DNA of 64,000 nucleotides from the NCBI GenBank assembly GCA_947491935.1, contig CANLLF010000001.1, positions 806,001 to 870,000 on the forward strand, read 5' to 3'. Source of the DNA: an uncultured Roseicyclus sp. Lineage in GTDB: Bacteria; Pseudomonadota; Alphaproteobacteria; Rhodobacterales; Rhodobacteraceae. Position numbers and translations under genes: made by a program. Of the stretch, positions 4,403 through 52,435 are shown in pieces. Below the pieces are notes generated by a model. It was given only the letters and a program-made list of their open reading frames with translations. It did no database searches and was not told where the DNA came from. Each line of letters begins with the position of its first letter. The first letter of the stretch is position 1.

Positions 4403-5234
4403 GGCGCCCGCGTTCGGCTTCCGCTTCGGCCACGGCGGGGTTGCCGGGGTAGCGCACGGCCACTTCGGCCAGCGTCAGACACGCCTCGTCGGCCTGGCCA
4501 AGCTGCGCCAGCGACACGCCAAGCGAGGTGAGCGCAGCGGGCGCGCGTTGCCCGTCCGGCTGCGCGGTGAAACTGTCAAGGAAGGCGCGCGCCGCCTGGC
4601 TCCAGCGGCCCAGATTCACCTCGGCCTCGCCGCGCAGGTAATGCGCTTCCGCCGATAGCGGCCCGCCGGGATAGCTCTCGGTGAAGGTCTCGAACAACAC
4701 CGACGCATCGGAGAAGTTGCCTGCCTCAAAGGCTTCCCGCGCGCGGTCGAAATCGCCCTGCTCGGCGACGGCGAGATTGCCGCTCCCGGTTTCGGGCAGT
4801 GGCGTGGTGGTGACGCCTCCATCGGTTGCCGGGGCAACGGGGGCAAGGCCGGTCGTCTCGGGTGTCACGCCGCCGAGCGACGGGGTTTCCCCAAGCGAGC
4901 CAACATCGCAATCCGGTTCCAGCTCACACAGGCGAAACTCCAGATCCCCGATCCGGTTGGTCCCGTCGCGCACAATGCTATCAACGGTCAATTGCAGGCG
5001 TTCGGTGGCCGAGGTCAGGCGCTGCACCTCCGCCTCGATGGTGTTCACCCGGTCCAGCGTCGTGCCCGACGCGCCCGATCCGGTCGCGCCACCCGTGGTG
5101 TTCAACTCGCCGCGCAGGCGCTGGATCTCCACGTAAAGCACCGACAATTCCTGGCGGATATCAGCCAGCGTCTGATCCTGCGCGAATGCAGGGCCAGCCG
5201 CCAGCGCCGCGCAAAGGGCAATCGCCAGCCGCAT
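4389..5234 (-). CDS. cpoB: Tol-Pal cell division coordinator CpoB (YbgF)
   Basis: Periplasmic protein that in E. coli couples Tol-Pal function with peptidoglycan synthesis during constriction. The 281 residues start with a clear signal peptide (MRLAIALCAALAAGPAFA). A coiled coil follows (about 25-115) with a Cys pair in LCELEPDCDVG. After a Gly/Thr-rich linker come C-terminal TPR repeats (about 160-281, e.g. AREAFEAGNFSDASVLFE, LRGEAEVNLGRWSQAA). It begins one base before the pal stop region, so the two are tightly linked. Confidence 0.93.
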   Translation of the reverse strand: MRLAIALCAALAAGPAFAQDQTLADIRQELSVLYVEIQRLRGELNTTGGATGSGASGTTLDRVNTIEAEVQRLTSATERLQLTVDSIVRDGTNRIGDLEFRLCELEPDCDVGSLGETPSLGGVTPETTGLAPVAPATDGGVTTTPLPETGSGNLAVAEQGDFDRAREAFEAGNFSDASVLFETFTESYPGGPLSAEAHYLRGEAEVNLGRWSQAARAFLDSFTAQPDGQRAPAALTSLGVSLAQLGQADEACLTLAEVAVRYPGNPAVAEAEAERGRLGCQ

Positions 5235-38180: not shown

Positions 38181-38387
38181 ATGGCGAGCGACATGCGGCT
38201 GGAAGAACAGGTGGCGCATCTGACCAAGGCGGTGGATGAAATGTCCGAGGTTGTCGCGCGGCAGGATGCCGAGATCGCGGTACTGACCCGGCGAGTGGAG
38301 ATGCTGATGTCGCGCGAGGCGGAGCGCGAGATCGATGGCAGCAGCGGCAGCATTCCGTTGGCGGATCAGAAACCGCCGCACTGGTAG
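38181..38387 (+). CDS. slyX: SlyX family protein
   Basis: 68 residues: a coiled coil of the SlyX type (EEQVAHLTKAVDEMSEVVAR, VLTRRVEMLMSREAE) ending in the family's PPHW (usually PPHY). SlyX proteins are widespread but of unknown function. ATG 38181 has GGAGG/GAGG upstream. Divergent from hisS, convergent with the MFS gene. Confidence 0.8.
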   Translation: MASDMRLEEQVAHLTKAVDEMSEVVARQDAEIAVLTRRVEMLMSREAEREIDGSSGSIPLADQKPPHW

Positions 38388-38424
38388 GCGCGCTTACGGT
38401 GATCGTTCGAGTGCGGCCAACCTC

Positions 38425-38486
38425 CCGGCTCCGGGGCTCTGCCCCGTCCTTCGGACTCCCCGGAGTTTTTCGGCCAAGATGAAAGA
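38425..38486. repeat. Rhodobacterales intergenic palindromic repeat
   Basis: Contains the hairpin CGGGGC TCT GCCCCG (38432-38446) followed by TCCCCGGAGTTTTTCGGCCA, then AGATGAAAG. Elements of this kind (GGGGC...GCCCC near an AAATACTCC/GGCCAAGATGAA box) are scattered between genes in Rhodobacterales. It lies between convergent slyX and the MFS gene, so it may serve as a terminator. Related stretches occur inside xdhA and xdhB in this window. Confidence 0.7.
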
Positions 38487-38513
38487 GACGCGCGATTGGC
38501 CCTCGATGGGAGG

Positions 38514-39740
38514 TCAGGCGGGTGCGGGCATGGCTGGTGCGCGCGGGCGGGATCGCAGCAGGATGTAGACCATGAGTGCGACGTTGAGCGCGTTGAAGGC
38601 GATCCCGTTCAGGAATGCCCATTGGTAGGATCCCGTCAGGTCGTAGATCCACCCCGAGAGCCAGCCGCCAATCGCCATACCGATGATCGTAGACATCATC
38701 ACGAAGCCGACCCGCGCCCCGGCCTCGCGCGCCGGGAGGTATTCGCGAACAATCACGGCGTAGGAAGGGACGATGCCGCCCTGGCTCAGCCCGAAGATCA
38801 TCGACACCAGGTAGAGAGATGTGAGGCCCGTTGTTGGCAGGTACAGGAACAGCGCCAACATCTGCAGGGTCGATCCGATCAGCAGGGTCAGCACGCCGCC
38901 CAGTTTGTCGGCCATCAGGCCGGAGACAAGCCGCGAGGCCACACCGCCCAGGAGCATCAGGCTGAGCATTTCCGCGCCCACTGCGGGGCCGTAGCCCAGA
39001 TCCACGCAATAGGCGACAATGTGGACCTGCGGCATCGACATCGCCACGCAGCATCCGATCCCCGCAACGGCCAGCAGGGCCGTCAGCGCGCGCGGGCTGA
39101 GGCCGGTGGTCAGTGCCTTGGCCGCGGCGGCGGCGTCCGACGTCATCATCGCGGCCTCGGGCAATTTGCGGCGCAGGGTCAGCGTGAGGGGCAGCATGAC
39201 AAAGATACAGGCCAGGGCAAGGATCACGTAGGCCGCCCGCCAGCCATCGGCGGCCAGCGTGCCCGCCAAAAGAAGGGGCCAGATGGCACCCGACAGGTAA
39301 TTGCCGGATGCGGCAATCGCCACGGCCAACCCACGCCGCTTCAGGAACCATTGCGAGGTGTCAGCGATCAGCGGCCCGAAGCTGGCCGACGAGCCGAACC
39401 CGATGGCAAATTGCGCCACTGACAGAAGGGCGATGTTGGGGGCGAGAAAGGCCGCTCCATAGCCCGCGCCCATCAAGACGGCCGAGGCCGCCAGCGACAG
39501 GGCCAGGCCGAACCGGTCCACGGCCTTGCCGATCAGGAAATTGCCAAGCGCAAAGCCCACCATCGTGAGCGTGTAGGGGATGGACGCATCGGCCCGCGTC
39601 GCGCCGAATTCGGCCTGCACGTCTGGCAGGATCAGGATCGTCGCCCACATGCCCGCATTCCCAATCAGCGACAGGCCAAGCGCGAGGGCGAGGCGAGTCC
39701 ATGAGGCGCGGTTATCGAGAGGGGGGTGGGCCGGTGTCAT
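38514..39740 (-). CDS. MFS transporter
   Basis: 408 residues with about twelve transmembrane segments, of the monocarboxylate/OFA-like style: an N-terminal SLIGNAGMWATILILPDVQA segment and QWFLKRRGLAVAIAASGNYL between TM4 and TM5, then a central break (LRRKLPEAAMMTSDAAAAAK). Substrate unknown. No operon partners. Confidence 0.87.
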   Translation of the reverse strand: MTPAHPPLDNRASWTRLALALGLSLIGNAGMWATILILPDVQAEFGATRADASIPYTLTMVGFALGNFLIGKAVDRFGLALSLAASAVLMGAGYGAAFLAPNIALLSVAQFAIGFGSSASFGPLIADTSQWFLKRRGLAVAIAASGNYLSGAIWPLLLAGTLAADGWRAAYVILALACIFVMLPLTLTLRRKLPEAAMMTSDAAAAAKALTTGLSPRALTALLAVAGIGCCVAMSMPQVHIVAYCVDLGYGPAVGAEMLSLMLLGGVASRLVSGLMADKLGGVLTLLIGSTLQMLALFLYLPTTGLTSLYLVSMIFGLSQGGIVPSYAVIVREYLPAREAGARVGFVMMSTIIGMAIGGWLSGWIYDLTGSYQWAFLNGIAFNALNVALMVYILLRSRPRAPAMPAPA

Positions 39741-39878
39741 CAGGGCCGCAGCCTAGGCGCGCTCCGGCGCGTTGGAAAGGCCGCTCCCACACCGCGATAT
39801 GGCAAAAAACCGGCGCTATGCTGCACGACCGAAATGTTCAATTGACACGACCTGCCGGTCTGACTCTATCTACCGTCC

Positions 39879-40307
39879 ATGGATATCAAACTCATTGCCC
39901 CCGCCCTCGCCCTTCCCTTTTCCCTCCTGCTGGCCGCCCCTGCCATGGCCGAGCCCGTGTGCTCCGGCGGCGGCTATGCCGCCGATGCCCTGGTGGTGCC
40001 CGATCCCGCCATCGGCACAATTTCCGTGTCGACCCAATACGCATGGGACGGTGGCGGCCGCCTGCACGAGGTGTGCAACCTTCTGACCGAAGGCGGTGAC
40101 TTTTTCGCCACCTGGTCCCTGTTTTCCGGTGAGATAGATGCCAGCTATCCTGGTATCTGCGTTTCGCTGACCAACACCGATGGGGTGGAATGGTTCTCGT
40201 GCAAAACGCCCGATGCAGTCACCGCCGCTTATGATGCCGAAGTCGGCAGCGAAAGCGCGCTTCTGCGGTTCGATGCGTGGGAGCCGCAGGCACCGGTTCT
40301 GCAATAA
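39879..40307 (+). CDS. secreted hypothetical protein
   Basis: 142 residues with a signal peptide (MDIKLIAPALALPFSLLLAA, AMA cleavage). The mature part is beta-rich and has four Cys (PVCSGGGYA, HEVCNLLTEGG, PGICVSL, FSCKTP) that could form two disulfides. No family recognised. Followed by a strong hairpin. Confidence 0.7.
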   Translation: MDIKLIAPALALPFSLLLAAPAMAEPVCSGGGYAADALVVPDPAIGTISVSTQYAWDGGGRLHEVCNLLTEGGDFFATWSLFSGEIDASYPGICVSLTNTDGVEWFSCKTPDAVTAAYDAEVGSESALLRFDAWEPQAPVLQ

Positions 40308-40337
40308 GTCGCGCGATCCGCACGGCCGCGGAATAAG

Positions 40338-40368
40338 AAAGAGCCTTGGCGCGATGCCAAGGCTCTTT
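40338..40368 (+). terminator. rho-independent terminator
   Basis: A perfect 13-bp stem AAAGAGCCTTGGC/GCCAAGGCTCTTT (40338-40350 with 40356-40368) with a 5-base loop, 30 bases after the secreted protein's stop codon. The stem's own A and T ends make it able to work in both directions. Confidence 0.75.
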
Positions 40369-40379
40369 CGACCTAAATC

Positions 40380-40733
40380 AAAGGGTTCGGTCTGAAAATC
40401 CCTTAGTGAATGACCGAAACCGTGCAACGATGCATGGATCCGGTTCACCTATCTCCGCAACCGGACGCAACCATTGAGGGTTGCCGGTCAAACGGTACAA
40501 ACGTCTTGGTCATGGCGCTATTCGCCAGACGACTTTTCAAATGGGTAGTCCCAGTCGTGCCGCCCCCCTTAGAGCATCCGGATTACCGAAGTGTATCCTC
40601 GGCCGCCGGTCATATAGAAAGCAGACGCATCATCTCCTACCCGATTTGATCGTTTGGTCAACAGGCGGAACAGGTCGGAAACATCGCGTTTGGAATCTGC
40701 GAACAATAGCCTGTCTAAAAGGACAGGTTTTTT
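40380..40733 (+). ncRNA. candidate small RNA ending at an orphan terminator
   Basis: Inferred only from the orphan terminator at 40710-40733. A small hairpin TGGCG/CGCCA (near 40512-40526) lies within. The 5' end is unknown and no promoter is clear. None of the known RNAs I can recognise by core motifs (RNase P RNA, SRP RNA, tmRNA) was seen here. Confidence 0.25.
40710..40733 (+). terminator. orphan rho-independent terminator
   Basis: Stem CCTGTC/GACAGG (40710-40715 with 40722-40727), 6-base loop TAAAAG, then six T (40728-40733). A textbook terminator reading on the plus strand, with no plus-strand protein gene in the preceding 340 bases. Confidence 0.75.
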
Positions 40734-40890
40734 CCATTTTGATGACAATTTGTGTGAAGGGCGTAACGTATTGTGATCGTCACGCGCTCAGCTCCGCGCA
40801 ACACAACCGCAGAGTGATTCGGTCTTCCTGCGCGCAACCAGTGGCTTGACGTAAGGGCAACGTCGGGGTTCGTGCAGCAGGACACATGGC

Positions 40891-43800
40891 TCAGACTTCT
40901 TCCACCATCACCACACCCTCTAGGCTCCGTAACGCACCCTTGATCTGGGGGGAGACCGGGAAATCCTCCCCAAGGATCACCTCCACCTCACCGGGCAGAT
41001 CGGGCGCCATCAGGCACAGGTGGATGGGGCCCTTGGCGGCGCGGGACGCCTCGGCCACCGTCCGCTCCAACAGGCCTTCGACGGAAACCACGCCGGCTTC
41101 ATCCTCGACAAACACTCGCAGCCCGTTGGCCTCACCAGCGATGGCATTATCGACGGGTTGAATGCCCCGGGCGAGCAGTTTTAGCTGATCCGCCTCAAGG
41201 GTTGCTTCCGCCTGCACAATTACGTTGCTGCCGGTTTCAAGAAACTCGCGGGATGCCTCCAGCGTGTCGGAAAACACAGTCACCTCGTAAAGGCCGGTGG
41301 GATCCGACAGCGACACGAAGGCGAACCGGTTCCCCCGCTGGCTCTTCCGCTCCTGCTTGACGCTGACGGCACCCGCCATCTTGGCCACGAAGGGGCCTTG
41401 CTGAACCCGAATCTCGACCTCGTTCAGCGTCATGACACCGCGCCGTTTCAGGGCGGGTAAGTAATCATCCAGCGGGTGGCCGGAGAAATAGAAGCCCACC
41501 GCCTGATGCTCCGCCGCCAACCGTTCGTTGGGCAACCAATCGGGCGGATTGGCGAGCCTGGGTTCGGGCAGGTCATCTCCCGCATCCCCAAACAGCGACA
41601 CCTGATCGGAGGCCGCTTGATCATGGACCGCCGCGGAATACGCCGTCAGCCCATCCAGGCTGTCCATCACGCAGCGGCGGTTGCGATCCAGTTCGTCGAA
41701 GGCTCCGGCGCGGGCCAGCATCTCCAACGACCGCTTGCCAACCCGCTTCAGGTCCACCCGGCGCGCCAGATCGAAGAGCGTCGCGTAGGGTTTGGCCCCC
41801 TGCTCTGTATTGCGCCCGTCGACGATCATCTTCATCGCCTCGACGCCCACGTTTTTCAGCGCGCCAAGAGCGTAGAGGATCTTGCCATCTTGCACCGTGA
41901 AGGTCGCCGCCGACCGGTTCACGCAAGGAGGCAGCGTCTCGATCCCCATCCGGTCAACTTCCTGCTTATAGACGGCCAGCTTGTCGGTCAGATGGATGTC
42001 GCAATTCATGACGGCGGCCATGAATTCAACGGGATGGTTCGCCTTCAGCCATGCGGTCTGGTAGCTCACGACGGCATAGGCGGCAGCGTGGGATTTGTTG
42101 AAACCGTAGTTAGCGAACTTGTCGAGAAGGTTCCAAACCTCGATCGCCTTGGCCTCATCCACGCCGTTTTCCGCGGCGCCCTTCAGGAACTTCGGACGTT
42201 CTGCATCCATCGCTTCCTGAATCTTCTTACCCATGGCACGGCGCAGCAGGTCGGCGCCGCCAAGCGAATATCCCGCCATCTCCTGGGCGATCTGCATCAC
42301 CTGTTCCTGGTAGACGATGATGCCCTGCGTCTCGTCCAGAATGTGGTCGATGGTCGGATGCAGCTTTTCGCGGTCGCTGATCCCGTTCTTCACCTCGCAG
42401 AACTTCGGAATATTCTCCATCGGGCCGGGACGGTAGAGCGCGACCAGCGCGATGATATCCTCAATACAATCCGGTTTCATACGCCGCAACGCGTCCATCA
42501 TGCCTGAGCTTTCAACCTGGAACACGGCGACAGTCTTGGCTGAGGCGTAGAGATCATAACTGGCCTTGTCGTCCAGCGGGATCAGGTTGATCTGGTTCTC
42601 CGTCCCCGGCGCGGGATCGTAGAGCTGCGCGCCATCCGGCCCCTCGTGCAATTGCCGCCCCGATTTATGGATCAGCTCAATCGCGTTCTGCACAACGGTC
42701 AGCGTCTTCAGGCCCAGAAAGTCAAACTTCACCAGCCCCGCCGGCTCTACCCACTTCATATTGAACTGCGTGGCGGGCATGTCGGATCGCGGGTCGCGAT
42801 AGAGCGGCACCAACTCGTCCAGCGGACGATCCCCGATCACCACGCCGGCGGCATGGGTGGAGGCATTTCGAAGCAAGCCTTCGATCTTCTCGGCGTAATC
42901 CATGAGACGGCGGGTCGGATTCACACGGCCATCGCGCTTGTCCTGTTCGCTCTCGCGCATTTCCTCGCGGATGCGTTCTTCTTGCGCCACCGCCTGAGCG
43001 ATGGAGACGGGTTTCACCCCCTCCACGGGGATCATCTTGGACAAGCGATCAACCTGCCCGAACGGCATCTGCAACACCCGACCCACGTCACGGACAGCGG
43101 CTTTGGACAAGAGCGCGCCGAAGGTGATGATCTGCCCCACCCGGTCGCGGCCGTATTTCTCCTGCACATAGCGGATCACTTCTTCCCGGCGATCCATGCA
43201 GAAGTCGATATCGAAATCCGGCATCGAGACGCGTTCCGGATTCAGGAAGCGTTCGAACAGCAAGGAATATCGCAGCGGATCAAGGTCCGTGATCGTCAAG
43301 GCATAGGCCACCAGCGAGCCAGCACCGGACCCGCGCCCCGGCCCCACGGGGATCTCTTGATCCTTGGACCACTTGATGAAATCCGCAACGATCAGGAAGT
43401 AGCCGGGGAACCCCATCCGTTCGATGATCCCAAGCTCGAAATCGAGCCGTTCCTGATACTCCTCAACCGATGCTGCGTGCGGGATCACTGCCAAGCGCTC
43501 TTTCAGGCCATCATTGGCCTGGCGGCGCAGTTCCTCCACCTCGTTATCGGCGAATTTAGGCAAGATCGGGTCGTGCATTTCTGCCCGGAACGCGCACCGC
43601 CGGGCAATCTCGACAGAGTTTTCCAGCGCCTCCGGCAAGTCCGCGAACAGGGCCGCCATCTCTTCCGGCGACTTGAACGAATGCTGCGGGGTCAAGCGGC
43701 GGCGCGGCTCGGATTGGTCCACATAGGCCCCCTGCGCGATGCAAATCATCGCGTCATGGGCCTCGTAAATCTCGGGCTTGGGGAAGTAGACATCGTTTGT

Positions 43801-44421
43801 GGCCACAAGCGGCAAGCCCAACTGGTAGGCCAATTCCACATGGCCCCGCTCGGTTGTCTTCTCTGCCTCCGGCAAGCCGCCTTCGCCGGGGTGGCGCTGC
43901 AATTCCACGTACAGCCGGTCGGGATAGATCGCCGACAAGGTTTTCAACAATGCCTCAGCCTTGGGCAATTGCGCAGCCTGCAGATGCCGCCCGACCGGCC
44001 CATCAGGGCCACCGGACAGGCAAATCAAACCCTCCGAATGCCCCTCAAGCTCCGCCAACGTCACATGGGGAAGTGACCCGTCCCCGCGCAGATAGAGCGC
44101 GGAATTCAGCTTCATCAGGTTCTCGTATCCCGTCCGGTTCTGCGCCAGCAAAACCACCGCCGCCGGTGCGCGTGGCCTCTCCCCCGGCGCGGCAACCTCG
44201 TATTCCACATCGATCTGGCAGCCGATGATCGGCTGCACCCCCGCTTTCTTCGCCATTTCGGAGAATTCGAGCGCGCAGAACATGTTGTTCGTGTCGGTCA
44301 CGGCGACGGCTGGCATACCTGCATCGGCGACGAGACCGGGCAGTTTCTTCACCTTCATCGCCCCTTCCAGCAGGGAGTATTCGGTGTGAAGGCGCAGGTG
44401 GATGAATCGGGGCTGGGTCAT
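40891..44421 (-). CDS. dnaE: DNA polymerase III subunit alpha
   Basis: Catalytic subunit of the replicative polymerase. 1176 residues: PHP domain first (HLRLHTEYSLLEGAMKV), then the polymerase core with GPGRGSGAGSLVAYALTITD and MPDFDIDFCMDRREEVIRYV (catalytic aspartates). Next are the finger region (KSHAAAYAVVSYQTAWLKAN), a helix-hairpin-helix and an OB domain near KMAGAVSVKQERKSQRGNRF. Length is normal for DnaE1. The gene stands alone. Confidence 0.97.
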   Translation of the reverse strand: MTQPRFIHLRLHTEYSLLEGAMKVKKLPGLVADAGMPAVAVTDTNNMFCALEFSEMAKKAGVQPIIGCQIDVEYEVAAPGERPRAPAAVVLLAQNRTGYENLMKLNSALYLRGDGSLPHVTLAELEGHSEGLICLSGGPDGPVGRHLQAAQLPKAEALLKTLSAIYPDRLYVELQRHPGEGGLPEAEKTTERGHVELAYQLGLPLVATNDVYFPKPEIYEAHDAMICIAQGAYVDQSEPRRRLTPQHSFKSPEEMAALFADLPEALENSVEIARRCAFRAEMHDPILPKFADNEVEELRRQANDGLKERLAVIPHAASVEEYQERLDFELGIIERMGFPGYFLIVADFIKWSKDQEIPVGPGRGSGAGSLVAYALTITDLDPLRYSLLFERFLNPERVSMPDFDIDFCMDRREEVIRYVQEKYGRDRVGQIITFGALLSKAAVRDVGRVLQMPFGQVDRLSKMIPVEGVKPVSIAQAVAQEERIREEMRESEQDKRDGRVNPTRRLMDYAEKIEGLLRNASTHAAGVVIGDRPLDELVPLYRDPRSDMPATQFNMKWVEPAGLVKFDFLGLKTLTVVQNAIELIHKSGRQLHEGPDGAQLYDPAPGTENQINLIPLDDKASYDLYASAKTVAVFQVESSGMMDALRRMKPDCIEDIIALVALYRPGPMENIPKFCEVKNGISDREKLHPTIDHILDETQGIIVYQEQVMQIAQEMAGYSLGGADLLRRAMGKKIQEAMDAERPKFLKGAAENGVDEAKAIEVWNLLDKFANYGFNKSHAAAYAVVSYQTAWLKANHPVEFMAAVMNCDIHLTDKLAVYKQEVDRMGIETLPPCVNRSAATFTVQDGKILYALGALKNVGVEAMKMIVDGRNTEQGAKPYATLFDLARRVDLKRVGKRSLEMLARAGAFDELDRNRRCVMDSLDGLTAYSAAVHDQAASDQVSLFGDAGDDLPEPRLANPPDWLPNERLAAEHQAVGFYFSGHPLDDYLPALKRRGVMTLNEVEIRVQQGPFVAKMAGAVSVKQERKSQRGNRFAFVSLSDPTGLYEVTVFSDTLEASREFLETGSNVIVQAEATLEADQLKLLARGIQPVDNAIAGEANGLRVFVEDEAGVVSVEGLLERTVAEASRAAKGPIHLCLMAPDLPGEVEVILGEDFPVSPQIKGALRSLEGVVMVEEV

Positions 44422-44509
44422 GGCCCAAAGCTATCCGACGCCGCGGGGATGCGGAACCGTAATCCCATCATCTGGTGGGTTTTTCCTCGCGCGCCCCTGC
44501 AACTGGTGG

Positions 44510-45340
44510 TCAGGGCAGGAGTTGATAGGCGGTGATCCGGCCGCGCCAATAGGGATCGTATCCCGCGAAATCATCGACATAGCCGACCTCGCCGCCCGTC
44601 GGGATGCGCCGCCCGCCGATGCGTTGGTAATCTTTGTAGAGCCCGCGCCATTCGCGGGACACGATCGTGCCATCCGGGCCTTCCTCCGGCCGATCTTCGG
44701 CGTGCATTTCCAGAATATCACCGTGGTCCCCGAACCGAAACGACACCCGCGCCGGGTTGGGGCTGAGCGGTAGTACGGCCTCGACCATGTTGTCCCCGAC
44801 GACCCGCCATTCGATCTCGGGGTTGCCGAGGATGGCGTCGGGCGCCCATGGGAGCTCTGCCAGATACCGCATCGCCTCTGCCCGATCCGCAACCGGACCT
44901 TCGGCATGGGCAACACGAAACGCGCCGAGGACAGCCGCCTGGAGCAACCCACGCCCGCCCACGAAACTGTCGATCACGGTGACCTTGGGAACGACCTCGC
45001 CCCCCTGACGCGCCGACCAGACGAACGCGCTGGTGCCCAACCCGATATGCTGCATCGCGGGCGTCACAACCCACGGCTTGTCGCGGCCCAGTTTCAGCTC
45101 GGCGGCTTGCGTCACGACCAGCGCACGCAAGGCCACGTTCGCGCCGCCACCATTCTTTTCCGCGAAGGCACGCACGATCTGTGGCAGGTCGACATGGCGC
45201 GTCGCAGGCCCCTCGCGCACTCGCCGCGCCAGATCCTCGGCCAATGCCGAAAACGAGCGTCGTCGACGAGCCCAGACTATCGTCAAGCCCCCAAACGCAA
45301 TAAGGAAAACCGCTACCAATATGCCGACCAGAACGCCCAT
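44510..45340 (-). CDS. membrane-anchored DUF6544-like protein
   Basis: 276 residues: an N-terminal transmembrane helix (MGVLVGILVAVFLIAFGGLT) and a soluble domain with HIGLGTSAFVWSARQGG, VIDSFVGGRGLLQAAVLGAF, RYLAELPWAPDAIL and GGRRIPTGGEVGYV, which fit the DUF6544 pattern. Function unknown. Divergent from the ArsR gene 105 bases away; they share an intergenic region with an inverted repeat. Confidence 0.72.
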   Translation of the reverse strand: MGVLVGILVAVFLIAFGGLTIVWARRRRSFSALAEDLARRVREGPATRHVDLPQIVRAFAEKNGGGANVALRALVVTQAAELKLGRDKPWVVTPAMQHIGLGTSAFVWSARQGGEVVPKVTVIDSFVGGRGLLQAAVLGAFRVAHAEGPVADRAEAMRYLAELPWAPDAILGNPEIEWRVVGDNMVEAVLPLSPNPARVSFRFGDHGDILEMHAEDRPEEGPDGTIVSREWRGLYKDYQRIGGRRIPTGGEVGYVDDFAGYDPYWRGRITAYQLLP

Positions 45341-45396
45341 AGTGGCATCCTAACATGGCCCAAAACAGGGGCGGCATGATCCTGCTCAAACTCAAA

Positions 45397-45416
45397 AGTT
45401 AGCCAAAGGGCTATCT
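45397..45416. promoter_or_regulatory. candidate ArsR operator
   Basis: Imperfect inverted repeat AGTTAGCC AAAG GGCTATCT (one mismatch) 30 bases upstream of the ArsR start, in the divergent region. ArsR-family repressors commonly bind such repeats near their own promoter; assignment is inference. Confidence 0.35.
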
Positions 45417-45445
45417 TTTTGCAATGATCCGCATTACTAAGCCCT

Positions 45446-45772
45446 ATGGCTAACCATTTGGACCACATTTTCACTGCCCTTGCCGATCCCACCCGCCGCG
45501 CCGTCATTGCCCGGCTGGGTCAGGGCGAGGCGCCGGTTTCAACCCTTGCCAGCCCCCATGACATGGCGCTGCCGAGTTTTCTGAAACACATCCATCAGCT
45601 TGAACGTGCCGGCCTTGTCAGCACCCGGAAGGTGGGGCGCACGCGCATCTGCACACTCCATCCCGAAGCTCTGGGCACGGTCAACACCTGGTTGGATCAG
45701 CAACGCCACATCTGGGAAGGCCGCCTTGACCGGCTTGACGCTTTTCTTTCCCGCACGGAGGACGATACATGA
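45446..45772 (+). CDS. ArsR family transcriptional regulator
   Basis: 108 residues: the winged helix is FTALADPTRRAVIARLGQGE, then LPSFLKHIHQLERAGLVSTR and KVGRTRICTLHPEALGTVNTWL. No metal-binding Cys is present, so it is of the non-metal group usually paired with SRPBCC genes. ATGA overlap with the next gene: a coupled regulator-SRPBCC-SRPBCC operon. Confidence 0.9.
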   Translation: MANHLDHIFTALADPTRRAVIARLGQGEAPVSTLASPHDMALPSFLKHIHQLERAGLVSTRKVGRTRICTLHPEALGTVNTWLDQQRHIWEGRLDRLDAFLSRTEDDT

Positions 45773-46221
45773 CCGATACCGAAACCCTCACCTTCTCGCG
45801 CAGCCTGTCCGCCGCGCCCGATCGCGTCCTCAAGGCGTTGACAGAAGCCGATGCGCGGATGGCGTGGGGCCCTCCCGATGCCGATACAGTTGTCTTGATC
45901 GAGGATCAGCCCGAGCCCGCGCCGGGCGTGCGCGAAACCTCTCGCTGCGGCCCGGCAGAGAACCCCTACGTGACCGTCCAGACCGACTGGATCCTGCTTG
46001 GGCCTGACCGCGTCAGCTATGCCGAAACCCTGTCGGCGGAGGGCGACGCCTTTGCCACCAGCCTTGCCATCTTCGATTTGGAGGAAACTCCGAATGGCAC
46101 CGAGATGTCTGCAACGATCCTGGTCGCCAGCTTCGCCGGGCCGGACGTGATACCCGAAGTGCAATCCGGATGGACCCACTCAGTGGAAAGCCTTGCCCGG
46201 TACATCGAAGGTGCAGCCTGA
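45769..46221 (+). CDS. SRPBCC (AHSA1-like) domain protein
   Basis: 150 residues of the START/Bet v1-like fold: an opening TFSRSLSAAPDRVLKALTEA is the AHSA1 N-terminal pattern, and GWTHSVESLARYIE closes it. It lacks the common W after the second strand (AHSA1 proteins often have WxxP; here MAWGPPDADT). Coupled at both ends (ATGA with arsR, TGATG with the next SRPBCC gene). Ligand unknown. Confidence 0.82.
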   Translation: MTDTETLTFSRSLSAAPDRVLKALTEADARMAWGPPDADTVVLIEDQPEPAPGVRETSRCGPAENPYVTVQTDWILLGPDRVSYAETLSAEGDAFATSLAIFDLEETPNGTEMSATILVASFAGPDVIPEVQSGWTHSVESLARYIEGAA

Positions 46222-46700
46222 TGGCAGGGCCGTCGGACAAATTCGACCCTGCGCGCGACCTTCTTCTTGAACGCGCATTGGCGGCCCCGCCCGAAAAGGT
46301 CTGGCGCTGCTGGACTGAGGCCGACCTGCTATGCCAATGGTTCACCCCGCCGCCCTGGCGCTGCGCGGAAGCCGTGGTAGATCCACGTCCCGGCGGGCGG
46401 TTCTTCACCCGCATGGCCGGCCCGGATGGAGAAGACATGCCGTCGGAGGGCTGTTTCCTGATCGTGGACGAGGGCCGGACGCTCGCCTTCACCGATGCCC
46501 TCTCGGCAGGGTTCCGGCCAACCGGCGGCGGCTTCATGACAGCGACGGTGACATTCATGCCCGACGGCACCGGCACCGCCTACAAGGTGATCGTCCGACA
46601 CGCCACGCCGGATGCGCGCGATCAACATGACGCCATGGGTTTTCAGGACGGATGGGGCACGGCCGCCGCGCAATTGGACGCTCTGGCGCGGGGCCTCTGA
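46221..46700 (+). CDS. SRPBCC (AHSA1-like) domain protein
   Basis: 159 residues. LLERALAAPPEKVWRCWTEA, LLCQWFTPPPWRCAEAVVD, RPGGRFFTRMAGPDGE and GFQDGWGTAAAQLDAL are all standard for AHSA1-type proteins. The ATG shares one base with the previous stop. Second SRPBCC protein in the ArsR-led operon. Confidence 0.85.
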   Translation: MAGPSDKFDPARDLLLERALAAPPEKVWRCWTEADLLCQWFTPPPWRCAEAVVDPRPGGRFFTRMAGPDGEDMPSEGCFLIVDEGRTLAFTDALSAGFRPTGGGFMTATVTFMPDGTGTAYKVIVRHATPDARDQHDAMGFQDGWGTAAAQLDALARGL

Positions 46701-46743
46701 TAAACCGCTTCTCGACGCCCGACAGGCGTGTCAGCTTGTCACC

Positions 46744-47700
46744 ATGTTGAGACCGACCGCCCTCGCCCTGCTCCTCTCTGGCCAACCCGCCTTTGCCTTC
46801 CCCGTTGAGAGGTGCATCAACCTCGGCGCCGCGATGGAAGCGCCGGTTGAGGGCGATTGGGGCTACGTCATCCAGCGCCGCCATATCCATGAGATCGCGA
46901 CGGCGGGCTTTGACACGATCCGCCTGCCCGTCCGCTTCCCCGCCCATTGGGATGGCCAGCGTCTGGAGCCGCAGATCCTGGCCCGCACCGATCAGATCAT
47001 CGCATGGGCCGATGCGGCAGGCCTGAACGTGATCCTCGATCTACACCATTTCACCGAGTTGAATGCGAACCCGGATGCTCATATCCCGACGCTCCACCAA
47101 ATCTGGGATGCGCTGGCCATCCACTACACCGGCGCGCCGGACAGCCTGATCTTCGAGCTGTTCAACGAGCCCGAGGGCGCTTTCACGACCGCCCGCGCGC
47201 TGCCGGTATTCGCGCAGATCACTGCGCGGCTCCGTCAGACCCACCCGGACCGCTGGATCATAACCGGTGGCGGCAACTGGAACGACCTTGATGAAATGCT
47301 GCAGATGCCTCCGCCCGATCACCGCGAGGTGCGCACGTTCCACTACTACCGGCCCTGGGCGTTCACCCACCAGCAGGCCGCATATATGGAGGATCCGCCG
47401 CCACCCACGCCCTGGGGCAGTCCGGAGGATCGCGCCACCCTCGCCGCCGACATGGGGCGGGCGGGATCGGCGGAAGGCCCGGTATTTCTGGGGGAGTTCG
47501 GCGTCTACGCCGCCACCGATCCGGACGACCGGCTGAGCTGGATTACGGCGGTGCGTGAAGCGGCCGACGCCAACGATCTGCCGTGGTGCTACTGGGGCTT
47601 CACCCAAGGGGCCGTCACCGGGTTTTCCGCCTATGACACAGCCGCGGAGCAGTGGGAGCCCGGGATGCGCGACGCGCTCCTGCCCGAACCACCGTCTTGA
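46744..47700 (+). CDS. secreted glycoside hydrolase family 5 protein
   Basis: 318 residues with a signal peptide (MLRPTALALLLSGQPAFA). A (beta/alpha)8 hydrolase of family 5 (cellulase-like): FDTIRLPVRFPAHWDG, VILDLHHFTELN, acid/base Glu142 in IFELFNEPEGAF, FHYYRPWAFTHQ and nucleophile Glu251 in VFLGEFGVYAA. Substrate (beta-glucan, mannan or other) cannot be told. It starts 43 bases after the SRPBCC gene. An inverted repeat CCGGCGCA/TGCGCCGG (47705-47734) follows its stop. Confidence 0.88.
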   Translation: MLRPTALALLLSGQPAFAFPVERCINLGAAMEAPVEGDWGYVIQRRHIHEIATAGFDTIRLPVRFPAHWDGQRLEPQILARTDQIIAWADAAGLNVILDLHHFTELNANPDAHIPTLHQIWDALAIHYTGAPDSLIFELFNEPEGAFTTARALPVFAQITARLRQTHPDRWIITGGGNWNDLDEMLQMPPPDHREVRTFHYYRPWAFTHQQAAYMEDPPPPTPWGSPEDRATLAADMGRAGSAEGPVFLGEFGVYAATDPDDRLSWITAVREAADANDLPWCYWGFTQGAVTGFSAYDTAAEQWEPGMRDALLPEPPS

Positions 47701-47826
47701 TATTCCGGCGCAGTCGCGCTTTGCTGTGCGCCGGTCATACGACGTTCCGGGGCCGCCCTCTACGCCGCATCGAGGGCCGGATGACCACCCCATTTGCGAA
47801 AAGGTAACGCGGCGGGCAATGCGCAT

Positions 47827-49236
47827 ATGACAACCCGGTTTCTTCTGAACGGAGAACCGCAAGAGGTCGAAGCCGCGCCCACGCGCACGCTTCTCGACTG
47901 GTTGCGGGACGAGGCGCGCCTGACCGGCACCAAGGAGGGTTGCAACGAGGGCGATTGCGGAGCCTGCACCGTGATGGTGACCGATCCCGACGGCAGCGCC
48001 CGTGCGCTGAACGCCTGCATCTTGTTCCTGCCCCAGTTGGACGGGCGCGCCGTGCGCACCGTGGAAGGTATCGCCGCGCCCGATGGCACCCTGCACCCGG
48101 TTCAGCAGGCCATGGTCGATCATCACGGATCGCAATGCGGCTTCTGTACCCCGGGGTTTATCGCCACCATGGCAACGGCTCATCTGAACGGGGCCACCGA
48201 CCACGAGGATCAGATCGCGGGCAATCTTTGCCGCTGCACCGGCTATGCGCCAATCCTGCGCGCTGCCCGCGCGGCGGAAACCGCCCCCGTTCCCGCCCAT
48301 ATGCGGGCGGATGCCGAAACGCTCCGCGCCGACCCCTTCCATTGGTCCGAAATACCCTCGGGGGGTGCGGGGGGCAGACAGCCCCCCGCCGCACCGACCT
48401 CGGCCGATGAGCTCGCCGATTGGTATATGGCACATCCGGACGGGACCCTGATCGCCGGCGCGACGGATGTCGGCTTGTGGGTCACCAAACAACATCGCGA
48501 TCTCGGCGAGGTTGCCTTCCTGAACCAGTGCTCTGATTTGCGGGAGATTGTCGTAGATGCGGAAACAATACGCTTCGGCGCCATGGCAAACCTCAACGAC
48601 GTTCAGGCGGAACTCGCGTCCCGCCATCCGAGCTTTGCGGAAATGATCCGCCGCTATGGGTCGGTTCAGGTGCGCAATGCAGCGACAATCGGAGGCAATA
48701 TCGCCAACGGCTCGCCCATCGGCGACACTCCACCCGCCCTGATCGCGCTCGGCGCGACGCTGCATCTGCGCAGAGGCGAGGCGCGCCGTGATCTTCCGCT
48801 GGAGGATTTCTTCCTAGATTATGGCCAACAAGACCGCGCGCCGGGCGAATTTGTCGAAGGCGTTTCGATCCCGGTTCAACCCGACCACCTGCGCGTCTAC
48901 AAGCTGTCGAAGCGGTTCGATCAGGACATCTCGGCGGTCTGCGGCGCGTTTAACCTCGCGGTCGAAGACGGCACGATCCGCACCGCCCGCATCGCCTTCG
49001 GCGGCATGGCCGGCATTCCAAAACGCGCCGCCGCCATTGAAGCCGCGCTGATCGGCCTGCCCTTCACGGACGCCACCGCACGCGCCGCTGCTCAAGCCTT
49101 CACGGAGGACTTCGCCCCGCTCACCGATATGCGCGCCTCGGCGGCGTACCGCCTGCAATCCGCGCAAAACATGCTGATCCGCTATGTCGCCGAGATGAGC
49201 GGGCAAGCAACATCGGTGCTGGAGGTACGGCTATGA
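47827..49236 (+). CDS. xdhA: xanthine dehydrogenase small (FeS/FAD) subunit
   Basis: 469 residues. An N-terminal [2Fe-2S] ferredoxin domain (C39, C44, C47, C64) and a second cluster domain (C104, C107, C135, C137 in QCGFCTPG and CRCTGYAPI) are followed by an FAD domain ([33 protein letters not shown]) and the CO_deh_flav_C tail. It passes electrons from the Mo centre to FAD/NAD. The linker (about 170-190, [17 protein letters not shown]) is encoded by a palindromic repeat-like sequence. ATGA overlap with xdhB. Confidence 0.95.
48335..48392. repeat. Rhodobacterales palindromic repeat inside xdhA
   Basis: CCTTCCATTGGTCCGAAATA (48335 on) then CCCTCGGGGGGTGCGGGGGG and CAGACAGCCCCCCGC. It reads like the reverse complement of the intergenic element at 38425-38486 (TTGGCCGAAAAACTCCGGGG...GGGGCAGAGCCCCG). 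It contains a perfect 9-bp stem GCGGGGGGC/GCCCCCCGC (48367-48375 with 48381-48389). It is in frame and encodes the Gly/Pro-rich linker at about residues 170-188. Confidence 0.55.
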
Positions 49237-51677
49237 GCGTCCACAAGCCCCTGCCCCATGACGCCGCGCAGCTACATGTTACCGGGCGTGCCCGATATGT
49301 GGACGACATCCCCGTTTCCGCCGATTGCCTGCATCTGGCCTTTGGCCTCTCCACCGCCGCCAAGGGCCGCCTGACGGCCCTGGACCTCGACGCCGTGCGC
49401 GCGGCGCCGGGAGTGGTGGGCGTGTGGGCCGGTAATGATCTTGATCCGATCCCCGATTGCTCCCCCTCCAATCACGACGAACCGCTCCTGAGCGATGGTG
49501 CGATCCACTATGCGGGCCAACCGCTTTTCATGGTGGCCGCAACCAGCCACCTGGCGGCCCGCAAGGCCGCGACGCTTGCAAGGATGGACGTGGTCGAAGA
49601 GCCGCCGATCCTGAGCATCGATCAGGCCCGCGCGGCCGATAGTCGGTTCGAGGACGGCCCACGCATCTACACCAAGGGCGATATCGATGCGGCGCTGGAT
49701 CGAGCGGATCACGTCGTTGAGGGCACCATCGAGATCGGCGGTCAGGAGCATTTCTACCTGGAAGGCCAGGCCGCCCTCGCCCTGCCCCAGGAAGATGGCG
49801 ACATGATCGTGCACTCGTCCTCGCAGCACCCGACCGAGATCCAGCACAAGGTCGCCGATGCGTTGGGCCGCCCGATGCACACGGTCCGCGTCGAAGTGCG
49901 CCGCATGGGCGGCGGGTTCGGCGGCAAGGAAAGCCAGAGCAATCACCTGGCCATTGCCTGCGCCGTGGTTGCCGAACGAACCGGTCGACCGGTGAAGATG
50001 CGGTACGACCGCGATGATGATTTCATCGTGACCGGCAAGCGCCACGATGCGCGTATTTCCTACCGCGCCGGGTTTGACGCAGACGGGCGCTGCCTGGGCG
50101 TCGATTTCGTGCAAGACATCCGGTGTGGGTGGGCGATGGACCTGTCCCTCCCCGTGGCCGATCGCGCGATGCTGCATGCCGACAATGCCTATCTTCTGCC
50201 CGCGGCGCGGATCACCTCACACCGATGGAAGACCAACACCCAATCCGCAACGGCATTTCGTGGCTTTGGCGGGCCGCAGGGCATGGTGGGGATCGAGCGC
50301 GTTATGGATCATGCCGCCCATGCGCTCGACATGGATCCTTTGGAGCTGCGGCGCGTGAATTACTATCGGGAGGCCCCTGTCGCCGATGCCGGACCCTCCG
50401 GGGCGAGTTTTTCGGCCAAGCTGAAACAGGGTGCGCGCCTGGATACCGCCGACCTGAAGGGGCGCGGTGCGGTGCGGGTGGCCCCGGGCGCTGGCACAGC
50501 AAAGCGGTTCGGCGGCGAGCATTCGCCGGTCGCGGGAGGCGACGCACCGAACACGACACCCTACGGGATGGACGTCGAAGATTTCATCCTGAACGACATG
50601 ACCGATCGGCTTGCGGCGGACTGTGACTACGAAAACCGCAGGGCGGATATTGCAACGTGGAATGCGCGCGAGCCTGTCCTCAAGCGCGGGATCGCGCTCA
50701 CGCCCGTGAAGTTCGGGATTTCCTTCACGCTGACTCATCTGAACCAGGCAGGCGCGTTGGTGCATGTGTATCAGGACGGCTCCATCCACATTAACCATGG
50801 CGGCACCGAGATGGGGCAGGGCCTGTTTCAGAAGGTGGCGCAGGTGGCGGCCGCCCGGTTCGGCGTGCCGCTGACGCAGGTGAAGATTACCGCGACCGAT
50901 ACTGGCAAGGTGCCCAACACCTCGGCCACGGCGGCCAGTTCCGGCAGCGACCTCAACGGGATGGCGGTGAAGGCCGCCTGTGACACGCTGTGCGGGCGGA
51001 TCGCAGAGGTGGTGGCCCCCGAGTTGCAGGCCGAAGCTGCCGACGTGGTGTTCGAGGATAGGATGGTCCGTGCAGGCAGCGCGGAGATGACGTTCGAGGA
51101 AGCCGTCTCGCGCACTTATCTGGCGCGCGTTTCGCTGTCGGCCACGGGTTTCTACAAGACGCCCAGGATCGCCTGGGACCGCATCGCCGGGCAAGGCCGC
51201 CCGTTTTTTTATTTCGCCTATGGCGCGGCCTGTTCCGAAGTGGTGATCGACACGCTGACCGGCGAAAACCGCATTCTTCGCACCGATATCCTGCATGACG
51301 TGGGCCAATCCCTGAACCCGGCGCTGGATGTGGGCCAGATCCAGGGCGGCTTCGTGCAGGGCGCGGGCTGGCTGACGATGGAGGAATTGGTCTGGGACGA
51401 TAAAGGCCGCCTGCGCACCCACGCACCCTCGACCTACAAGATCCCCTGCGCCTCGGACGCGCCGGATATCTTCAACGTGGCGCTTTGGGATGGGGTCAAC
51501 CGGGAAGACACGATCTATCGCTCCAAAGCAGTGGGGGAGCCGCCCTTCATGTTGGGTATCAGCGTGTTGTCCGCCCTCGGTCAGGCCTGCGCGGCATGTG
51601 GGCCGCATTTCCCGGATTTGCAGGCACCGGCCACCGCCGAGGCGGTGCTGGCCGCCGTGTCACGCGCCCGCGGATGA
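49233..51677 (+). CDS. xdhB: xanthine dehydrogenase large (molybdopterin) subunit
   Basis: 814 residues. Substrate oxidation at a Mo-pterin centre: [35 protein letters not shown] (Mo ligand environment), [40 protein letters not shown] and the general-base Glu in [20 protein letters not shown]. Residues about 383-442, between NYYRE and [11 protein letters not shown], seem to be an extra segment compared with what I know of the family. Part of it (386-399, ASFSAKLKQ) is encoded by a copy of the Rhodobacterales repeat. Overlaps xdhA and xdhC by 4 bases each. Confidence 0.95.
50389..50430. repeat. Rhodobacterales palindromic repeat fragment inside xdhB
   Basis: GGACCCTCCGGGGCGAGTTT then TTCGGCCAAGCTGAAACAGG. 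The 16 bases GAGTTTTTCGGCCAAG (50405-50420) are identical to 38463-38478 in the intergenic element, and the flanks (CTCCGGGG before, TGAAA after) also correspond. It is in frame and part of a segment absent from the usual family alignment. The GGGGC...GCCCC hairpin half is not present. Confidence 0.6.
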
Positions 51678-52435
51678 GCGCCGTGCGCGTCACCATCGTG
51701 GCGGCCCGGGGCTCTGCCCCGCGGGACGCCGGCACCGCGATGCTGGTCCATCCCGACCGCATCGACGGCACGATCGGTGGCGGCGCGCTGGAATGGGAGG
51801 CGATGCGGATCGCCCGAGAGATGCTGAACGGGGATACCGCCCAAACCACCCGCACGATCGCGCTTGGCCCGGCCCTCGGCCAATGTTGCGGCGGGGCGGT
51901 AACGCTACACTTTGAGCCAGCCGAGACCCTGCCCGAGCCATTGGGCATGCCGGTTTGGATCTGGGGCGCGGGCCATGTGGGCCGTGCGCTTATCCACAGC
52001 TTATCCGCACTGCCCGATATCTCGCTCACATGGGTCGATGTCGCGGCAGAGCGGTTTCCACAGGCTGTCCCCACTAATGTCCACAGCATCGTTGCTACCG
52101 GCCCGCCTGCACTGGTGCCGCACGCACCGCCGGACGCGCATCACCTGATCCTGACATATTCCCATGACATCGACTTGGCCCTCTGCCACGCCGCTCTGAA
52201 CCACCAGTTTGCCAGCGTCGGTCTAATCGGATCAGCCACCAAATGGGCCCGCTTCCGCAAACGGCTCGGCCAGTTGGGCCACGATGATGCACAAATATCG
52301 CGCATTGATTGCCCAATTGGGGATCCATCGCTTGGCAAACAACCGCAAGCCATTGCGATTGGCGTCGCGGCACGGCTACTTGATAGGCAAATGCTGCAAG
52401 AATCGGCACTCGCGACAAGGTCTGGGGGGACATGA
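51674..52435 (+). CDS. xdhC: xanthine dehydrogenase accessory protein XdhC
   Basis: Binds and inserts the sulfurated molybdenum cofactor into XdhB. 253 residues: the N-terminal XdhC motif VAARGSAPRDAGTAMLVHPD followed by GTIGGGALEWEAMRIAREML, then a C-terminal Rossmann domain (PVWIWGAGHVGRALIHSLSA; ASVGLIGSATKWARFRKRLG). The ATG overlaps the xdhB stop. ATGA overlap with the ABC ATPase that follows. Confidence 0.94.
   Translation: MSAVRVTIVAARGSAPRDAGTAMLVHPDRIDGTIGGGALEWEAMRIAREMLNGDTAQTTRTIALGPALGQCCGGAVTLHFEPAETLPEPLGMPVWIWGAGHVGRALIHSLSALPDISLTWVDVAAERFPQAVPTNVHSIVATGPPALVPHAPPDAHHLILTYSHDIDLALCHAALNHQFASVGLIGSATKWARFRKRLGQLGHDDAQISRIDCPIGDPSLGKQPQAIAIGVAARLLDRQMLQESALATRSGGT

What the first reader, a model, noticed from the sequence alone, without database searches (positions are those of the whole stretch)
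48335..50430. Palindromic intergenic repeats apparently inserted in frame in both xdhA and xdhB
The intergenic element at 38425-38486 shares 16 identical bases (GAGTTTTTCGGCCAAG) with the middle of xdhB (50405-50420), and both flanks correspond. xdhA carries at 48335-48392 a stretch that reads like the same element in reverse, with a perfect 9-bp GC stem. In xdhA it encodes a Gly/Pro linker between the FeS and FAD domains. In xdhB it lies in a segment of about 60 residues (383-442) that I do not recall from related enzymes. Repeats entering coding genes in frame recall the Rickettsia palindromic elements; two in the two subunits of one enzyme would be striking.
Basis: partly seen in the sequence, partly recalled or inferred. 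Interest (0 to 1): 0.75.

Follow-up and report, generated by a model that had tools for sequence, protein, structure and literature searches.

The report
DNA repeats colonising enzyme linkers
A short hairpin-forming repeat that normally sits between genes in Rhodobacteraceae bacteria has been built in frame into flexible joints of both subunits of xanthine dehydrogenase (and of a chlorophyll-making enzyme), and different genera carry their own local version of it there, so a selfish-looking repeat keeps rewriting part of working enzymes.

Summary
The finding holds and is wider than stated. The genome carries a palindromic repeat (GC hairpin plus tail). A model built from 23 non-genic copies lists 99 matches (150 of 3558 candidates scored); xdhA ranks 19th, E 8.6e-12. 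Of 75 matches examined with flanks, three are called in-gene: xdhA (antisense), xdhB (sense) and bchB. All three sit between domains. Synonymous-codon shuffles never reach the observed score (0 of 500 each for xdhA and xdhB). Models trained on non-xdh copies of two genera, run over 80 xdh loci and the window, put 25 of 31 and 21 of 24 hits in these two linkers. In-gene copies carry lineage-specific tails: C. ovatus has 97 copies of its xdh tail, 15 other genomes 2 in all; three further tests agree, one is less clean. So the linkers were re-colonised or re-converted repeatedly. Only about 13 residues of the 60-residue XdhB segment are repeat-derived. It works like Rickettsia palindromic elements but is not shown to be one. 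The mover is unknown; no RAYT transposase match in this genome.

The parts
48333..48389 (-). In-frame repeat copy inside xdhA (read antisense by xdhA); encodes about residues 169-188, [19 protein letters not shown]...
   Evidence: CM R1 match C1:854333-854385, E 8.6e-12 (not in the training set); nhmmer 35.3 bits; 17 sister copies; called in-gene
48367..48389 (+). 9-bp GC hairpin of the xdhA copy (stem 48367-48375 with 48381-48389)
   Evidence: strand folding
50391..50427 (+). In-frame repeat copy (short type) inside xdhB, residues 387-399, [13 protein letters not shown]
   Evidence: nhmmer 17.8 bits, E 0.0013 over 821 kb; CM only E 0.36; 0 of 500 shuffles; the copy in L001 scores E 1.4e-6
50428..50545 (+). 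Rest of the extra XdhB linker; no second copy found, not part of the repeat
   Evidence: DNA search of own genome: one match, itself (40 of 48 candidates scored)
38430..38487 (+). Intergenic copy of the repeat (hairpin, spacer, tail)
   Evidence: Seen directly; a training member of model R1, so its CM score (E 1.9e-12) is by construction
47827..49236 (+). xdhA, xanthine dehydrogenase small subunit; the element lies between Fer2_2 (to residue 147) and FAD_binding_5 (from 189)
   Evidence: Pfam, NCBIfam TIGR02963 over its cut-off
49233..51677 (+). xdhB, molybdopterin-binding subunit; the element lies between MoCoBD_1 (to residue 377) and MoCoBD_2 (from 460)
   Evidence: Pfam, NCBIfam TIGR02965 over its cut-off

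Best explanation
The two stretches are in-frame copies of a family of short palindromic repeats (GC hairpin, spacer, tail such as GAGTTTTTnGGCCAAGATGAA or a lineage variant) that the Rhodobacteraceae genomes counted here carry at tens to about a hundred copies, nearly all outside genes. SHOWN: both copies belong to the genome's repeat population; they keep the frame open; they fall at domain junctions; the same junctions (and the one in BchB) carry the repeat in other genera; and in several genera the in-gene copy has that genome's own tail, absent or nearly absent from the other genomes searched. INFERRED: copies enter, or overwrite older copies, again and again from the local pool by an unknown copying or conversion process; most in-gene landings are lost, but interdomain linkers tolerate a Gly/Pro-rich or Lys-rich disordered peptide; protein-level filtering keeps tolerable frames (sense copies nearly always read xIS[GA]KMK or similar, the hydrophilic frame); old copies then decay by point mutation and deletion.
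For: Family membership and census. Other loci: models trained without xdh copies give 31 (G000) and 24 (C. ovatus) hits at E up to 1 over 821 kb. By label, 25 of 31 and 21 of 24 are in the xdhA or xdhB linker zones, 3.5% of the bases; 2 of the 3 others for the second model (L041, L051) lie in xdhB linkers of partial loci by my reading of the coordinates. Reversed-sequence control: 0 at E up to 1 for both. Lineage match (patterns were written from in-gene tails, so the in-gene copies match by construction; the other copies are the evidence): 97 in own genome vs 2 in 15; 26 vs 0 in 15; 41 and 53 in two Pseudorhodobacter vs 0 in 14; 56 vs 3 in 12. xdhA and xdhB tails of one genome agree more than when permuted: mean 8.75 of 12 vs 6.91, 216 of 40320. 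Frame: the xdhA tail is read in three different frames in different genera. Sisters L040 and L045 have different tails, hairpins and frames at the same xdhB site. XdhA residues 171-183 have pLDDT under 50, the longest such stretch.
Against: In the window's own genome xdhA and xdhB carry different subfamilies (tail identity 6 of 12); L044 (3 of 12) and L040 (6 of 12) also disagree within a genome. The P. wandonensis xdhB tail is not private: 39 copies in its own genome but 42, 18 and 15 in three others, 0 in six. Orientation is constant in the hits called (14 of 14 antisense in xdhA; 17 of 17 sense in xdhB, 19 of 19 with L041 and L051), which random insertion does not predict and which fits one old insertion per gene plus conversion. 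The codon model found only 141 of 174 test sites in genes it was trained on; 24 of 99 genomic matches were not examined, and only 150 of 3558 candidates were scored, so in-gene copies may be missed. The xdhB copy alone is weak in the CM search (E 0.36). bchB in this genome is weak by the HMM (2 of 500 synonymous and 3 of 500 codon-order shuffles reach it), and only 5 of 16 bchB linkers printed show an element by eye. The XdhB structure could not be run.
Confidence: 0.8

Rival explanations
1. A narrower case of the above: one old insertion in each gene (xdhA antisense, xdhB sense) in an ancestor of the family, since kept up to date only by ectopic gene conversion with the genome's repeat pool, plus losses; no new insertions.
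For: Constant orientation per gene, nearly constant frame in xdhB (21 of 22 tails picked by eye), same sites throughout; decayed copies visible by eye, e.g. L002 xdhA.
Against: The xdhA tail is read in three frames and the CTGTCTG hairpin in three frames, which needs frame-changing exchanges; presence is scattered on the tree (at least 6 changes for xdhB, 8 for xdhA on 55 rows; backbone weak, gain and loss not told apart, HMM misses count as absence); bchB copies use the same sense frame in an unrelated gene, so constant frame can be explained by protein filtering.
Confidence: 0.35
2. The in-gene copies are kept for a nucleic-acid function: a GC hairpin at a domain junction slows ribosomes or tunes mRNA stability in cofactor-loaded, multidomain enzymes.
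For: All three host genes encode cofactor enzymes and the copy sits at a domain junction; the hairpin is kept while its reading frame differs between genera; the xdhA element is 59 of 59 identical to L001, 19 of 19 third positions versus 85% gene-wide.
Against: The xdhB copies of the window, L002, L011, L015 and L055 lack the hairpin; RNA fold z is only -1.96 for xdhA, 0.16 for xdhB and -0.95 for bchB; many relatives have no element called; the xdhB element is 35 of 37 identical to L001, like the gene; 19 of 19 has a chance of about 0.04.
Confidence: 0.1
3. The peptides are functional and ancient in XDH and BchB; the intergenic copies derive from the genes.
For: In the genome of L003, xdhB and bchB share the identical peptide APEERISGKMK.
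Against: Peptides differ between genera and come in several frames; the non-Rhodobacteraceae loci and many Rhodobacteraceae lack them.
Confidence: 0.03
4. Chance likeness of GC-rich linker codons to a GC-rich repeat.
For: Gly/Pro-rich coding DNA is compositionally similar; synonymous shuffles of xdhA reach up to 25.6 bits and of xdhB 15.4; the 16-mer within the window alone is weak.
Against: 0 of 500 shuffles reach the observed score for xdhA or xdhB; lineage-specific tails; reversed controls 0.
Confidence: 0.01

Closest known systems
Rickettsia palindromic elements (RPE)
   Same: Palindromic repeats found both between genes and fused in frame inside conserved protein genes, apparently tolerated.
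   Different: RPE are 105-146 bp and were seen in 19 reading frames (PMC2229807, passages read). Here the unit is about 30-90 bp, hosts are Rhodobacteraceae, and the in-gene copies found are in three genes but carry local sequence in different genera.
Protein-coding palindromic repeats of Wolbachia and of Methanocaldococcus jannaschii
   Same: Palindromic repeats with coding potential.
   Different: Known here only from titles in the reference list of PMC2229807; no sequence comparison made.
REP elements with RAYT transposase
   Same: Short, hairpin-forming, many copies, mostly extragenic.
   Different: REPs seldom overlap coding regions (PMC12306157, passages read); no RAYT (PF01797) match in this genome.

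Membership tests
Rickettsia palindromic element | Copies both intergenic and fused in frame inside conserved protein genes | tested here: met
   xdhA, xdhB, bchB in frame; the other 72 of 75 examined matches not called in-gene
Rickettsia palindromic element | Unit of 105-146 bp with terminal inverted repeats | tested here: not met
   48-87 bp in matches with E below 1e-5, under 31 bp for the short type; the hairpin lies at one end only
Rickettsia palindromic element | Inserted in many unrelated genes (19 frames reported) | tested here: not met
   3 genes among 75 examined of 99 listed matches in the own genome; 2 of 97 in Cereibacter ovatus, 1 of 52 in P. wandonensis, 3 of 26 in T. stenotrophicus
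Rickettsia palindromic element | Sequence homology to RPE | not tested
   No RPE sequence fetched; Rfam scan of 38300-51800 gave only two hits below gathering score, away from the elements
REP/RAYT | RAYT transposase (PF01797) in the genome | tested here: not met
   0 matches in G000 and in 12 others of 16; strong in G013, one just over and one under cut-off in G008, one under in G014
REP/RAYT | GTAG or CGTC tag at one end | not tested
   Not scanned
Xanthine dehydrogenase XdhA/XdhB | Curated NCBIfam equivalogs over cut-off | tested here: met
   TIGR02963 586.6 bits (cut-off 467), TIGR02965 1179.1 bits (849.5)
BchB (third host gene) | Oxidored_nitro plus PCP_red domains | tested here: met
   Both Pfam domains over cut-off in L313, L330, L326; NCBIfam BchB models are the best hits but below cut-off, only 416-427 residues having been given to models of 512-535

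The most novel reading that the evidence does not exclude
Certain interdomain linkers of cofactor enzymes are preferred, repeatedly reused homes for a family-wide palindromic repeat: the repeat pool of each genus keeps overwriting the same linkers, so the linkers evolve in concert with intergenic DNA, and the hairpins placed at the domain junction may pace translation or folding.
Probability: 0.15. Interest if true: 0.9.

Novelty: new variant of a known kind. Interest (0 to 1): 0.72.

Why it matters
In what I saw, protein-coding palindromic repeats are described from Rickettsia, Wolbachia and an archaeon (PMC2229807, passages and reference titles). Here a family with cultivable, genetically workable members (recalled, from no call) shows them recurrently at fixed junctions, with a signature that the local repeat pool keeps rewriting working enzymes. 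That makes the open questions (insertion or conversion, tolerated or useful) testable. It also suggests that the linker of the crystallised Rhodobacter capsulatus XDH (FTLAQLSSGVRGQTAPAF in 2w3r/1jro) is an old copy; this is inference from protein likeness only.

Tried and rejected
XDH-only explanation: rejected when an in-frame copy turned up in bchB. The first coding-potential model for C. ovatus was trained on long ORFs that included antisense ones; the gene-orientation counts are discarded and one search is superseded by a model trained on xdhA/xdhB of relatives and seven window ORFs. Six of the eight C. ovatus candidates and L088 look like antisense ORFs and have no Pfam match. L212 and L177, called at lower thresholds, lie upstream of likely start codons of genes on the same strand (gene identities not tested). 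A CTGTCTG-hairpin enrichment in xdh copies was considered and dropped because 27 of 95 pool copies in C. ovatus have it (3 of 44 in G000). RAYT as mover: no match. Rfam: nothing at the elements. The XdhB structure job was never accepted. One search missed subfamily A through a faulty pattern, corrected; one search failed on a script error, rerun. The permutation test was run with three choices of Pseudorhodobacter representative: 216, 21 and 156 of 40320; I quote the first. In one search the frame of L017 was ambiguous and the tail of L033 was not placed.

Literature: no report of this repeat inside xdh or bchB was seen in the listings of searches (open-licence PMC only; none of these searches named bchB). 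Passages read: PMC2229807, PMC12306157, PMC4149021 (only a CRISPR reference). Ogata 2000, 2002, 2005 and Suyama 2005 were seen only as references; PMC186582 is not held.
Full report
What was claimed.

Is it in the sequence? Yes. The 16-mer occurs at 38463 and 50405; in the window alone this is weak (5 of 100 shuffles give 2 or more matches with up to 3 mismatches). In the whole genome it has 3 exact copies and 28 within 2 mismatches, against 2 for the backwards control. Contexts show a repeat with a G-run/C-run hairpin, a variable spacer often holding a second small hairpin, and a tail. There are at least two hairpin-bearing tail subfamilies and a short type (...CCTCCGGCGGGAGTTTTT...). The xdhA stretch on the minus strand matches the second subfamily over its length: 17 further copies, control 0, all 17 with the hairpin. 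Its 9-bp stem is predicted. The xdhB stretch is of the short type.

Is it more than chance? An HMM from 44 G000 copies, xdh excluded, scores xdhA 35.3 and xdhB 17.8 bits; none of 500 synonymous-codon and none of 500 codon-order shuffles of either gene reach this; for the bchB part, 5.2 bits, 2 and 3 of 500 do. A covariance model from 23 copies not called in-gene (rough E-values) lists 99 matches at E up to 1 in the genome, 150 of 3558 candidates having been scored: xdhA E 8.6e-12 (rank 19, several higher ranks being training copies), bchB 0.0019, xdhB only 0.36.

How often is it in genes? With a codon model trained on xdhA/xdhB of relatives and seven window ORFs, 75 of the 99 matches could be examined with flanks. 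At the most lenient threshold three are called in-gene: xdhA, xdhB and bchB; 24 were not held. In Cereibacter ovatus, 97 copies of its tail gave two in-gene, xdhA and xdhB; two more at lower thresholds lie upstream of likely start codons. In Pseudorhodobacter wandonensis 52 of 53 copies were examined; one, xdhA, is called at 0.08 and none at 0.15 (its xdhB copy has another tail). In Thalassobacter stenotrophicus 26 copies gave none at 0.15, xdhA and bchB at 0.08, and xdhB too at 0. The model finds 141 of 174 random sites in xdhB genes of its own training set at 0.15, so some in-gene copies may be missed.

Relatives. 80 xdhB loci were fetched. In the 64 sources aligned, XdhB linkers are about 7-8 residues in three cyanobacteria and about 6 to 62 in Rhodobacteraceae. 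XdhA linkers repeatedly show FxxxEISSGG...PP peptides, and the DNA shows full antisense elements. Two models trained without xdh copies, from G000 and from C. ovatus, were run over all 80 loci and the window (821,149 bases): 31 and 24 hits at E up to 1; 25 and 21 are labelled as xdhA or xdhB linkers; reversed sequences give 0. Merged, 14 sources have it in xdhA, all antisense, and 17 in xdhB, all sense; with L041 and L051, partial loci assigned by coordinate, 19. No locus from outside the Rhodobacteraceae had a hit.

Lineage-specific tails. Patterns were written from in-gene tails, so the in-gene copies match by construction; the rest is the test. The tail shared by xdhA and xdhB of C. ovatus occurs 97 times in that genome, once each in two others and never in 13. 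The tail of T. stenotrophicus: 26 against 0 in 15. Two Pseudorhodobacter: 41 and 53 against 0 in 14. The tail shared by xdhB and bchB in the genome of L003: 56 own, 3 in two others, 0 in ten. Less clean: the P. wandonensis xdhB tail has 39 copies in its own genome, 18, 42 and 15 in three others, 0 in six. Across eight genus representatives the xdhA and xdhB tails of one genome agree at 8.75 of 12 positions against 6.91 when permuted (216 of 40320; other representatives 21 and 156). The agreement is perfect in C. ovatus, T. stenotrophicus, Shimia ponticola and L043, and no better than chance in the window's genome, L040 and L044.

Frames. In xdhA 17 tails were placed: 13 in frame 1 (L017 ambiguous), 2 in frame 0 (L010, L055) and 2 in frame 2 (L036, L044); the CTGTCTG hairpin is read as RQPP, QTAP or ADSPP in different genera. 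In xdhB 21 of 22 tails picked by eye are in frame 0, the exception being L045, whose sister L040 has another hairpin, tail and frame. bchB was found in 18 of 25 genomes; 16 linkers were printed and 5 show an element by eye, all sense and in the same frame. I infer that protein filtering can set the sense frame: the others run into TGA or give aromatic residues.

Structure. In XdhA the element-encoded residues 169-188 fall between Fer2_2 and FAD_binding_5; the longest stretch with pLDDT under 50 is 171-183. In XdhB the element lies between MoCoBD_1 and MoCoBD_2; no model could be made. In BchB it lies between Oxidored_nitro and PCP_red. The R. capsulatus crystal structures have an XdhA linker of similar wording; I take it for an old copy, untested at DNA level.

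Tree. On 55 rows (quick tree, weak backbone, linkers left out; nine loci with alignments and all partial or distant ones dropped, three rows without the XdhA part) presence by HMM needs at least 6 changes for xdhB and 8 for xdhA. Counts cannot tell gain from loss and HMM misses count as absence. L002, sister to the window pair, has a decayed xdhA copy (my alignment by eye). The xdhA element is 59 of 59 identical between the window and L001, the xdhB element 35 of 37, the genes being 93% identical.

Conclusion. A Rhodobacteraceae repeat is built in frame into a few interdomain linkers and renewed from the local pool. New insertion and conversion of old insertions cannot yet be separated; constant orientation favours conversion, the different frames and bchB favour insertion. 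Function, if any, is untested. No RAYT match was found in this genome, so the mover is unknown.

Noticed in passing
L003 about 5165-5200 and L326 (bchB of the same genome, G017:C56:75337): xdhB and bchB encode the identical peptide APEERISGKMK from nearly identical DNA. They are the only 2 of 56 pool members without mismatch, but the pattern was written from them. Possible gene-to-gene copying of an in-frame element.
   Followed up: partly
window 50440-50545 and XdhB linkers of L017, L021, L023, L024, L027, L034, L048, L050, L059: Recurrent peptide motifs like GPGTxxRFGGxHSP and DLASRGAxxN in XdhB linkers (by eye; the second also in XdhA of L014 and L049); the window DNA finds only itself in the genome, origin unknown.
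   Followed up: partly
L023:6655-6718 and L027:6656-6718: Repeat copies just downstream of xdhB in two Lutimaribacter.
   Followed up: no
G013 (genome of L010, Marinovum algicola): Nine RAYT/Y1 transposase matches in this genome, while 13 of the 16 genomes searched have none.
   Followed up: no
window 40324-40421: Rfam hits below gathering score (rli61, cyano_het_sRNA) on both strands just after the ORF at 39879-40307; probably just a strong hairpin.
   Followed up: no
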